Source: an uncultured Wohlfahrtiimonas sp. (lineage in GTDB: Bacteria; Pseudomonadota; Gammaproteobacteria; Cardiobacteriales; Wohlfahrtiimonadaceae). From it: a DNA stretch of 64,000 bases. The position numbers and the translations under genes are program-made. This document shows positions 57,943 to 60,930 of this stretch, one piece after another. The DNA lies in the NCBI GenBank assembly GCA_947630895.1, contig CANRJJ010000003.1, positions 1 to 64,000 on the forward strand, read 5' to 3'. The notes beneath the pieces are model-generated. The model had not been told where the DNA came from, did no database searches, and saw nothing but the letters and a program-made list of their open reading frames with translations. Positions within the stretch are counted from its first letter, which is position 1; each line of letters begins with the position of its first letter.

Positions 57943-57956
57943 TTGATCCAGATCAA
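57943..57956. promoter_or_regulatory. Consensus FNR-type palindrome
   Basis: TTGAT-CCAG-ATCAA, exact TTGAT-N4-ATCAA; sits at the 3' end of a minus-strand ORF in a convergent region. Confidence 0.3.
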
Positions 57957-58639
57957 TCTTTCAAAGAGATAGGTTCAATAATTTTCTGTTCAAAATAACG
58001 CGGTGAAATATATTGGATAATTGATCTTTTTTGCTGATCAGTAGATATATCAATGCCTTTGTCAGGGTAAAGATAGTGAATTGTTCCTGTATTTTTGCCA
58101 TTTATGGTTTCTTCCATGATTAAATCAGGCTCACCAAAACGCATTTTAATATCTTCTGGTGTTAATACAATTTGTGTTGGAATAAATGCCAAGCTAAATA
58201 AAGGTATATCTAAAAATAAAGGACTTAGATTTGAAGTGATTTTGTAGCTTTTATTTCGGCTCATTGGAGCAATTTCAGGATCCAATTGTGCCTTAATCGA
58301 ATCTAAGTTTTTATCGCTATCTTTCAAGGTAAATGCCATTCTGCCGATAAATGGCCCGGCTTTTGTTTCGCGGAAATAGCCTTCAATTTGGTCACCATCT
58401 TCAGTTTCATAAATGGTAACAGTCACTCGATTGCCAAATGTTGCGATAGCATCTTGTAAAGTCGATTCATTGAGCGTTAAGCCAAAAATTTCCATCTCTT
58501 CTTCAGGAGACAGGGAAGTTTCCCAGAATAGTTCATGCGTTTGGTTTTCGATGCGAGGTGCGAACATTGGCAAGCCAAAGTAGGCAAAAGCAGCCACAAA
58601 AATAATACAGGCTACGGTAATGATGGATTCTTTTTTCAT
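57953..58639 (-). CDS. Hypothetical membrane-anchored protein
   Basis: 228 aa; N-terminal hydrophobic segment (SIITVACIIFVAAFAYFGLPMF); family not recognised. Confidence 0.65.
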   Translation of the reverse strand: MKKESIITVACIIFVAAFAYFGLPMFAPRIENQTHELFWETSLSPEEEMEIFGLTLNESTLQDAIATFGNRVTVTIYETEDGDQIEGYFRETKAGPFIGRMAFTLKDSDKNLDSIKAQLDPEIAPMSRNKSYKITSNLSPLFLDIPLFSLAFIPTQIVLTPEDIKMRFGEPDLIMEETINGKNTGTIHYLYPDKGIDISTDQQKRSIIQYISPRYFEQKIIEPISLKD

Positions 58640-58690: not shown

Positions 58691-59233
58691 TTAGCTTAAT
58701 GCTTTAAAAATACGTTGGCTGATGTCGTTTACTTCACCAACACCTTCGACTGTCACTAATTTACCTTGTTTCGTGTAGTAATTAATTAACGGTGTTGTTT
58801 CTGATTCATAAACTTTACGTCTTTTTTCAATTGTTTCTTCGTTGTCATCTGAACGACCACGAGACAATAAACGCTCTTTGATGATTTCAAAAGGAACATC
58901 AAAGAAAATTACTTTATCTACTGGTTGGTCAAGATTTTGCAACAATTCATCCAAAGCTTCAGCTTGGTTAAGATTGCGTGGGAAACCATCCAATAAAAAG
59001 CCACCATCTAATGCTTCAATACGATTTTTGATCATACCTAATACGATTTCATCAGAAACTAGTTGACCAGCATCCATGATTTTCTTTGCTTCTAAACCTA
59101 ATGGTGAGCCAGCACTTACTTCACTTCTCAACATATCACCTGTTGAAAGGTGAGTGATTCCATATTTTTCGACTAAATTGGCTGCTTGAGTCCCTTTTCC
59201 TGAGCCGGGTGCACCCAATAATACGATACGCAT
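58691..59233 (-). CDS. adk: Adenylate kinase (short form)
   Basis: 180 aa; MRIVLLGAPGSGKGTQAANLVEKYGITHLSTGDMLR, FLLDGFPRNLNQAEAL; RGRSDDNEETIEKRRKVYESETTPLI with no LID/zinc insertion. Confidence 0.95.
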   Translation of the reverse strand: MRIVLLGAPGSGKGTQAANLVEKYGITHLSTGDMLRSEVSAGSPLGLEAKKIMDAGQLVSDEIVLGMIKNRIEALDGGFLLDGFPRNLNQAEALDELLQNLDQPVDKVIFFDVPFEIIKERLLSRGRSDDNEETIEKRRKVYESETTPLINYYTKQGKLVTVEGVGEVNDISQRIFKALS

Positions 59234-59290: not shown

Positions 59291-60529
59291 TTATTCCCAC
59301 TCAATTGTTGCAGGTGGTTTGTTAGAAACGTCATAAACTACGCGCGTTACTTTAGGTATCGATAGAATAATCTTGTCTGAAATTTCTTCGATAAATTCGT
59401 AAGGTAAGCGAGCAGCACGAGCAGACATGAAGTCAATAGTTTCAATGGCTCTCAATGCGATCGTATATTCATAAGTACGTTTATGATCTTTGATCCCTAC
59501 AGATTTAACAGGCAAGAATACTGCGAATGCTTGAGAGATTGAATTGTATAAATTATGCTCACGAAGACCATTTACGAAGATATCATCCGCTAAACGTAAA
59601 ATATCAGCATATTCTTTGTTAACTTCACCTAAAATACGAACACCTAAGCCTGGTCCTGGGAATGGATGGCGATATAAAAGTTCGTGTGGTAAACCTAAAG
59701 ATAAACCCAATTCGCGTACTTCATTTTTGAACAAGTATTTTAATGGTTCAATCAATGAAAATTGCATATCTTCTGGTAACCCACCCACGTTGTGGTGAGA
59801 TTTGATCACGTTGTCAGCACCGTGATGATCACCTGATTCTAAAACATCAGGATAAATTGTGCCTTGAGCCAACCATTTAGCATGAGATAGTTTTTGCGCT
59901 TCTTCTTCAAAAATCTTAATGAATAATTCACCAATGATTTTACGTTTACGTTCAGGATCAGCAACGCCTGCTAAAGCAGTTAAATAACGATCTTCAGCAT
60001 TCACACGAATAACGTTTACACCCATTTTTTCATGGAAAATGTTCATTACTTGGTCGCCTTCGTTCAAGCGCATCAAGCCTGTATCAACAAAAATACACGT
60101 TAATTTGCTGCCGATAGCTTTATGTAATAAAGCTGCAACAACGGAGGAGTCAACACCACCAGATAAAGCAAGGATAACTTCGTCATCACCTACGATTTCT
60201 TTGATGCGACGGCTTTCTAACTCAGAGAATGCTTCAACTGTCCATGTTGGTTGTAATGCTAATTTTTCTTTTAAAAACTCAGAGATATGAGCTTTTAGAT
60301 GAATGCTTGTTAATGATTCAGGTGTAACTGTGAATGTTTTTTCTTGTGGATATTGATCCAATCTTGCTAAATCAATGATCGCAGGTGCTTCTGCTACTAA
60401 AGATTCAGTTACTTTAGTTACAGGAACCAATTCACAATAAAAGTTTAATGAACGAATCATTTGCGCGACTGTTTGTGCATCCTGACGGTTTGAATACACA
60501 ACTAATATTTCATCTATTAAGGTGCTCAT
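59291..60529 (-). CDS. guaA: GMP synthase with truncated N-terminal GATase region
   Basis: 412 aa from MSTLIDE; ATP-PPase [23 protein letters not shown] and dimerisation domain intact (C-terminus PPATIEWE); N-terminal region is short and lacks catalytic Cys/His-Glu motifs. Confidence 0.93.
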
Positions 60530-60613
60530 AATACCTATTTCCAAGGGTTAATTAAGGCTCGCATTGTAGCAAATTCTAACAAAATCATGTAGGTAATCTT
60601 CTATTGAATCGGT

Positions 60614-60678
60614 CTATTCACATTTCAAGAATAATTCACAAAGTTATCCACATCCTTAATCACAAGAATTGTGAATAA
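60614..60678. promoter_or_regulatory. Cluster of DnaA-box-like 9-mers
   Basis: TTATCCACA (60644-60652, +) and TTATTCACA (60670-60678, -) match TTATNCACA exactly; CTATTCACA (60614-60622), TAATTCACA (60632-60640) and TTAATCACA (60656-60664) each differ by one base. Confidence 0.6.
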
Positions 60679-60787
60679 GTATTCAATATTGATGAATCTA
60701 TAGGTTTAGAGATGATCATGAGTGGCTCAATCAAGATGTAATGAATGAATAAAAAAACTGATCTGTTAATTTTTTTAACAAAACCCA

Positions 60788-60816
60788 TTGACACACAATA
60801 AAAATATTTGTAATTT
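60788..60816 (+). promoter_or_regulatory. Putative sigma70 promoter upstream of dpp operon
   Basis: TTGACA, 17-nt spacer, TAATTT. Confidence 0.45.
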
Positions 60817-60930
60817 GCCAAACCTGTAATGCATATATTATAAGTATGCTATTATATTATTTTTTTAAGTTATTGTGCTTTAATATGCAAAAGCTTAAGC
60901 AAGTTGGACAGGTGAATTGGTAAGTACTTT

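What the first reader, a model, noticed from the sequence alone, without database searches (positions are those of the whole stretch)
60614..60880. DnaA-box cluster plus 13-mer-like DUE between guaA and dpp: oriC-like, datA-like or DnaA-regulated region
Within about 65 bp there are two exact TTATNCACA boxes (TTATCCACA at 60644 on +; TTATTCACA at 60670 on -) and three one-mismatch boxes (60614, 60632, 60656). About 80 bp further is GATCTGTTAATTT (60760-60772), which differs at one position from the E. coli oriC 13-mer consensus GATCTNTTNTTTT. A very AT-rich stretch follows (ATGCATATATTATAAGTATGCTATTATATTATTTTTTTAAG), and an IHF-like AATCAAGATGTAA lies between. The arrangement (boxes, IHF-like site, 13-mer, AT-rich DUE) recalls a bacterial origin, but no dnaA, dnaN, mnmG or parAB is in the window. 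It is also just upstream of guaA; DnaA boxes affecting gua transcription are described in E. coli.
Basis: partly seen in the sequence, partly recalled or inferred. Interest (0 to 1): 0.62.

Follow-up and report, generated by a model that had tools for sequence, protein, structure and literature searches.

The report
DARS-like DnaA site before a guaA-like gene
The box cluster is real, but it is not the replication origin: three of its boxes have exactly the spacing and orientation of the E. coli DARS sites that recharge the replication initiator DnaA, and here they sit in front of a purine-nucleotide operon of the bacterium Wohlfahrtiimonas.

Summary
The five DnaA boxes exist as described and are not chance. 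The oriC reading fails. GC skew is positive on both sides. The 13-mer, IHF-like site and AT-rich stretch are unremarkable and absent from sister species. A far stronger oriC candidate lies elsewhere in the same genome (G000:C1 ~101.2-101.9 kb), where skew changes sign.

Three of the boxes (60644 +, 60656 +, 60670 -) reproduce the core geometry of E. coli DARS1/DARS2: two tandem boxes 3 bp apart, then an opposing box 5 bp away. In the E. coli stretches I read, only DARS1 and DARS2 match this; datA, polA, purH, nrdA, nrdD, dnaA and oriC do not. With up to 3 mismatches it occurs 85 times in 35 of 40 relatives (6 in this genome) with no reversed-control hit; widening the 5-bp gap to 8 bp leaves 4 hits.

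The guaA-side array is kept in all six Wohlfahrtiimonas genomes (exact DARS geometry in four), although the opposite neighbour differs in four ways. The adjacent gene is a GuaA paralogue without the glutaminase active site, followed by adk.

Most likely this is a DARS-type DnaA-binding core embedded at the guaA'-adk promoter. Nucleotide exchange and regulation are inferred. No Hda passing the model cut-off was found.

The parts
60644..60678 (+). DARS-type core: TTATCCACA-tcc-TTAATCACA-agaat-TGTGAATAA (box III >, box II >, box I <)
   Evidence: same 12-bp and 14-bp start spacings and orientations as E. coli DARS1 and DARS2; 26/35 identical to DARS1, while DARS2 is 24/35 identical to DARS1; only match with up to 4 mismatches in the window
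60644..60652 (+). DnaA box III, TTATCCACA (consensus)
   Evidence: identical in all 6 genus members
60656..60664 (+). DnaA box II, TTAATCACA (one mismatch)
   Evidence: conserved in 4 of 6 genus members
60670..60678 (-). DnaA box I, TTATTCACA (opposing box)
   Evidence: conserved at the same 5-bp gap in 4 of 6; TGATCCACA at a 9-bp gap in the other two
60632..60640 (+). additional tandem DnaA box, TAATTCACA, 3 bp from box III
   Evidence: TTACCCACA or TTACTCACA at the same place in sister species
60614..60622 (+). outlying DnaA box, CTATTCACA
   Evidence: only in this genome and its closest relative
60563..60568 (-). -10 element of the guaA' promoter, TACAAT with upstream TGn (extended -10), poor -35 (prediction)
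   Evidence: TGnTACAAT conserved in all six genus members; no experiment
59291..60529 (-). guaA': GMP synthase paralogue (412 aa) whose glutaminase domain is reduced to a remnant without the catalytic Cys motif
   Evidence: syntenic in all six Wohlfahrtiimonas genomes
58691..59233 (-). adk, adenylate kinase, same strand, 57 bp after guaA'
   Evidence: sequence read by eye, not family-searched; guaA'-adk order kept in all six
57953..58639 (-). 228-aa protein of unknown family, probably third gene of the operon
   Evidence: no family match

Best explanation
The array is a chromosomal DnaA-binding element with the architecture of a DARS core (DnaA-reactivating sequence), one of about six in this genome, placed at the promoter of a guaA'-adk operon. 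Inferred mechanism: DnaA on the opposing boxes I and II meets head to head, and boxes III and beyond extend the assembly head to tail. As at E. coli DARS1, this would favour release of ADP from DnaA so that it can rebind ATP. Because the array ends just upstream of the guaA' promoter, the same occupancy probably also tunes guaA'-adk transcription, as DARS1 lies before uvrB. Shown: the boxes, the geometry, its statistical specificity, its conservation and its linkage to guaA'. Inferred: DnaA binding, nucleotide exchange and the transcriptional effect.
For: Geometry identical to DARS1 (TAATACACAtggTTATCCACAggaatAGTGGATAA) and DARS2 (TTCTTCACAactCTATCCACAgaaaaGGTGAATAA). In 112 kb of E. coli around eight DnaA loci, only DARS1 and DARS2 match with up to 5 mismatches. 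Genome-wide with up to 3 mismatches: 85 hits in 35 of 40 relatives, 0 in the reversed control, against 4 hits when the 5-bp gap is widened to 8. In 577 kb of held sequence the 3/5 spacing gives 18 hits; every other spacing tried gives 0 to 3 (the loci overlap and were partly chosen for tandem boxes, but not for the 5-bp gap). Exact facing pairs peak at a gap of 5. The guaA-side boxes persist in six genomes with four different opposite neighbours. DnaA domain IV keeps the box-reading helix-turn-helix (HSLPEIGRAF-RDHSTVMHACRK). DARS boxes I and II oppose each other and act head to head (PMC8682772). Tandem boxes 2 or 3 bp apart are what DnaA binds in vivo in E. coli (PMC11317965).
Against: No biochemical test. 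Box II here is non-consensus, and other cores in the genome have a consensus box II (C25, C4, C107). In W. chitiniclastica and Wohlfahrtiimonas sp. G9077 the opposing box at guaA' is 9 bp away, so the exact geometry is lost there. Six copies per genome is more than the two known in E. coli. No Hda passing the model cut-off was found in ten family genomes, so the ATP/ADP cycle may differ. Position relative to oriC is unknown because the assembly is a draft of 123 contigs.
Confidence: 0.52

Rival explanations
1. A plain DnaA-operated promoter element: tandem 3-bp-spaced boxes regulate guaA'-adk, linking purine-nucleotide supply to replication, with no nucleotide-exchange role. The opposing box is incidental or helps binding.
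For: Tandem boxes upstream of guaA' are kept in 6 of 6 genomes even where the opposing box is not. The promoter has a conserved extended -10 and a poor -35. E. coli polA, purH, nrdA and nrdD have tandem boxes without the DARS geometry. The polA double box TTATGCACAaagTTATCCACAt is nearly the same as TAATTCACAaagTTATCCACAt here.
Against: It does not explain the exact 5-bp opposing box in 4 of 6, nor the second W. populi copy with the same geometry between two convergent gene ends. Box-to-promoter distance varies by about 12 to 34 bp between species.
Confidence: 0.3
2. A DnaA titration (sink) site: it simply sequesters DnaA like the extra-oriC clusters of Bacillus subtilis; precise architecture is irrelevant.
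For: Several clusters of 3 to 7 boxes per genome outside oriC; titration by chromosomal boxes is shown in E. coli (PMC12371093).
Against: Titration does not require one fixed 3/5 spacing, yet that spacing is strongly preferred.
Confidence: 0.1
3. A replication origin (primary or secondary).
For: Boxes next to AT-rich DNA and a 13-mer-like word.
Against: Skew positive on both sides; skew switches at G000:C1 ~101.5 kb and at the syntenic place in G001, with 10 to 23 boxes and GATGATGA-type repeats; AT-rich and 13-mer parts not conserved.
Confidence: 0.02
4. A short repeat that serves as a recombination or insertion boundary, with DnaA boxes incidental.
For: The upstream neighbour changes at the array in four lineages; W. 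populi carries a second 49-bp copy flanking a 5.4-kb accessory block.
Against: Only one lineage has two copies; another holder of the block (G005, C83) has no array there; the same box geometry recurs at unrelated loci.
Confidence: 0.04

Closest known systems
E. coli DARS1 (bioD-uvrB intergenic)
   Same: three boxes, orientations > > <, gaps of 3 and 5 bp; 26 of 35 positions identical; lies upstream of a gene reported as DnaA-regulated
   Different: different neighbouring genes; here one or two extra tandem boxes; box II weaker and box I stronger than in E. coli; activity untested
E. coli DARS2 (mutH-rppH intergenic)
   Same: same core geometry; 24 of 35 positions identical
   Different: the IHF and Fis sites needed by DARS2 were not established here (the IHF-like word is neither a strict match nor conserved)
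E. coli double DnaA boxes (polA, purH, nrdA, nrdD)
   Same: tandem boxes 2 or 3 bp apart; the polA spacer aag is identical
   Different: these E. coli sites lack the opposing box at 5 bp
E. coli datA
   Same: cluster of DnaA boxes outside oriC
   Different: no DARS geometry; datA depends on an IHF site at fixed spacing, not found here
reported DnaA box at the E. coli gua operon (Tesfa-Selase and Drabble 1992)
   Same: DnaA box linked to a GMP-synthesis gene
   Different: that is a single box within guaB and is not bound in vivo by ChIP-seq (PMC11317965); here a multi-box array precedes a guaA paralogue

Membership tests
DARS | core of three DnaA boxes, I and II in opposing orientation | tested here: met
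   60644 +, 60656 +, 60670 -
DARS | spacing of the core boxes as in E. coli DARS1/DARS2 (gaps 3 and 5 bp) | tested here: met
   compared with NC_000913.3 sequence
DARS | flanking stimulatory region (DARS1) or IHF and Fis sites (DARS2) | tested here: inconclusive
   no strict IHF match within 1 kb; IHF-like word not conserved in sister species; Fis sites not searched; DARS1 flank has no simple consensus
DARS | promotes release of ADP from DnaA | not testable with these tools
   needs biochemistry
DARS | deletion lowers ATP-DnaA and delays initiation | not testable with these tools
   needs genetics
oriC | GC-skew sign change at the site | tested here: not met
   skew positive on both sides; change found at C1 ~101.5 kb
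oriC | conserved DUE or 13-mers next to the boxes | tested here: not met
   not conserved, 13-mer not enriched
datA | DnaA boxes flanking an IHF site at fixed spacing | tested here: not met
   no strict IHF match near the array; box arrangement differs from datA
DnaA-regulated promoter with a double DnaA box | tandem boxes 2 or 3 bp apart upstream of the gene | tested here: met
   60632/60644/60656, each 3 bp apart; conserved before guaA' in 6 of 6
DnaA-regulated promoter with a double DnaA box | DnaA-dependent change in transcription | not testable with these tools
   needs reporter or RNA data

The most novel reading that the evidence does not exclude
Wohlfahrtiimonas and its relatives carry a multi-copy set of DARS-type cores (about six per genome), several at promoters of nucleotide, envelope or division genes, in cells with no recognisable Hda. 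DnaA recharging would then be distributed over the chromosome and coupled directly to gene expression, rather than concentrated at two dedicated loci as in E. coli.
Probability: 0.17. Interest if true: 0.68.

Novelty: new member of a known kind. Interest (0 to 1): 0.47.

Why it matters
A full-text source held here states that the DARS2 core is conserved among gamma-proteobacteria related to E. coli (PMC4245941). Finding the exact core geometry well outside that group, with a very low background, gives a simple sequence rule (box-3-box-5-reversed box) to predict such sites in other gamma-proteobacteria. Their presence where no Hda was recognised makes it testable whether DARS-type recharging can exist without Hda-driven inactivation. 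At this locus the array also precedes a purine-nucleotide operon (guaA'-adk).

Tried and rejected
oriC: rejected by skew and by a better candidate region. datA: no strict IHF match near the array, and E. coli datA lacks the geometry. CRP site: the TCACA...TGTGA half-sites are in the reverse of the CRP arrangement (own knowledge of the consensus). Chance: rejected by simulation, reversed patterns and a shifted gap. The 49-bp array as a mobile or integration repeat: pursued because W. populi has two copies and the neighbours change, but the other genome carrying the same accessory block has no array beside it. Tandem boxes inside coding sequence (C38, C63, C1:118174) were set aside. An E. coli genome-wide pattern scan was not possible, because that record is not held by the genome tool.

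Full report
WHAT WAS CHECKED. Five DnaA boxes with at most one mismatch lie in 65 bp. This is the densest cluster of the window, and none of 60 simulated windows matches it. The 13-mer-like word and the IHF-like word are real strings but not unusual in this AT-rich DNA.

WHERE IT IS. The window is part of a 2.13-Mb draft genome (G000, 123 contigs). Named relatives of the guaA-like protein at 82-97% identity are Wohlfahrtiimonas. The boxes lie between a gene pair guaA'-adk on the minus strand and an ABC-transporter (dpp-type) permease on the plus strand.

NOT THE ORIGIN. GC skew is positive on both sides of the site. In contig C1, at about 101.2-101.9 kb, an AT-rich intergenic region holds ten boxes (six exact), and repeats of the type TATATATAGGATGATGATGA sit next to boxes. 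GC skew changes from negative to positive there, and the same happens at the syntenic place in relative G001, where 23 boxes occur. That is the likely oriC. dnaA itself is on another contig (C5). In the five sister genomes the 13-mer, the IHF-like word and the AT-rich stretch are missing, because the neighbour on that side is different.

WHAT IS CONSERVED. Aligning the guaA' upstream regions of six Wohlfahrtiimonas genomes shows that the boxes stay with guaA' while the opposite neighbour is a dpp permease, eutQ, a zinc-type regulator/ABC block, or a transporter. Box order and spacing are identical in four genomes. In the two genomes of the W. chitiniclastica branch the tandem pair remains, but the opposing box is degenerate and 9 bp away. 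An extended -10 (TGnTACAAT) is conserved downstream, with a poor -35. Ten other genomes of the family have the same paralogue; in the seven examined the cluster is absent.

THE GEOMETRY. In E. coli, DnaA binds mainly pairs of boxes 2 or 3 bp apart (PMC11317965). This array has three tandem boxes with 3-bp gaps and one opposing box at 5 bp. Reading the MG1655 sequence shows that DARS1 and DARS2 both have two tandem boxes with a 3-bp gap followed by an opposing box at 5 bp, the same as window 60644-60678. The window core is 26/35 identical to DARS1; DARS2 is 24/35 identical to DARS1. Within 112 kb of E. coli covering DARS1, DARS2, datA, polA, purH, nrdA, nrdD and dnaA-oriC, only the two DARS loci match with up to 5 mismatches. 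The rest of the E. coli genome was not scanned.

HOW SPECIFIC. With up to three mismatches in 24 fixed positions the core is found 85 times in 35 of 40 related genomes, six times in this one, and never with the reversed pattern. Widening the 5-bp gap to 8 bp leaves four hits in 40 genomes and none in the genus. A base-composition estimate is 0.006 per genome. Exact facing box pairs with gaps of 0-20 peak at 5 bp: 13 of 35 sites, plus 6 at gap 17, most of which are the 5-bp arrangement with one more tandem box between. In held sequence the 3/5 spacing gives 18 hits and every other spacing 0 to 3; these loci overlap and were partly chosen because of tandem boxes, so the genome-wide test is the unbiased one.

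OTHER CORES IN THIS GENOME. They lie between eda and kdsB (C4; found at the same place in the genus members examined), between glnE and trkH (C25), between recC and pssA (C107), at the end of a gene on C99, and inside a coding sequence on C63. Gene names here are read from the protein sequences by eye. Two relatives have one upstream of rsmH in the division cluster.

THE NEIGHBOUR GENE. The 412-aa protein is a GMP synthase whose synthetase and dimerisation parts are intact. The glutaminase part is reduced to about 50 residues that still align with the start of the normal domain (score 62; best of 300 shuffles 41), and the GICYG active-site motif is absent. A full-length guaA exists on C19, with no exact box within 6 kb upstream.

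MECHANISM. Known: at DARS, DnaA on boxes I and II interacts head to head, ADP leaves, and apo-DnaA rebinds ATP (PMC8682772, PMC5742627). Inferred: this site does the same, and its tandem boxes extend the assembly towards the guaA' promoter. The DnaA of this genome keeps the box-reading motif. Against a full E. coli-like cycle, no protein passed the Hda cut-off in ten family genomes; weak 250-262 aa hits exist in some and were not resolved.

A SECOND COPY. W. populi carries a second 49-bp copy of the array (G003:C34:134494-134542), 94% identical to the window copy, between two convergent gene ends 5.4 kb from guaA', with an accessory gene block between the two copies. This shows that the array can exist away from a promoter. 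It also leaves open that the array served as a recombination point.

VERDICT. The finding is a real DnaA site, reinterpreted from oriC-like to DARS-core-like, with promoter linkage. It is a new member of a known kind; the function is not shown.

Noticed in passing
G000:C1 ~101200-101900 (L032 9200-10010); G001:C4 ~110900-111570 (L044 10380-11260): Likely oriC of Wohlfahrtiimonas: many DnaA boxes, repeated TATATAGGATGATGATGA-type modules next to boxes, GC-skew switch; located between a transporter-protein gene and the rimP-nusA side, not beside dnaA.
   Followed up: partly
window 59291-60529: GuaA paralogue lacking the glutaminase active site, with only a remnant of that domain; found with a full-length guaA in most genomes of the family. 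Possibly an ammonia-dependent GMP synthase.
   Followed up: partly
G003:C34:134494-134542 and 139932-139975 (L053 495-543 and 5933-5976): Two same-orientation copies of the DnaA-box array flank a 5.4-kb accessory block (zur/fur-like regulator, ABC transporter) next to guaA' in W. populi.
   Followed up: partly
G000:C4:27192-27226 (L033 7193-7227): DARS-type core in the eda-kdsB divergent intergenic region, found across the Wohlfahrtiimonas genomes; better conserved than the guaA' site and perhaps the main DARS of the genus.
   Followed up: partly
ten genomes of the family: No protein above the Hda model cut-off; DnaA itself is the best hit. The genus may lack Hda or have a very divergent one.
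   Followed up: partly
G001:C1:232256-232290 (L049 5757-5791): DARS-type core upstream of rsmH (division and cell-wall cluster) in two W. chitiniclastica-type genomes.
   Followed up: no
G001:C4:86071-86092 (L045 6072-6092): Exact double DnaA box TTATGCACAaagTTATCCACA upstream of a catalase-like gene.
   Followed up: no
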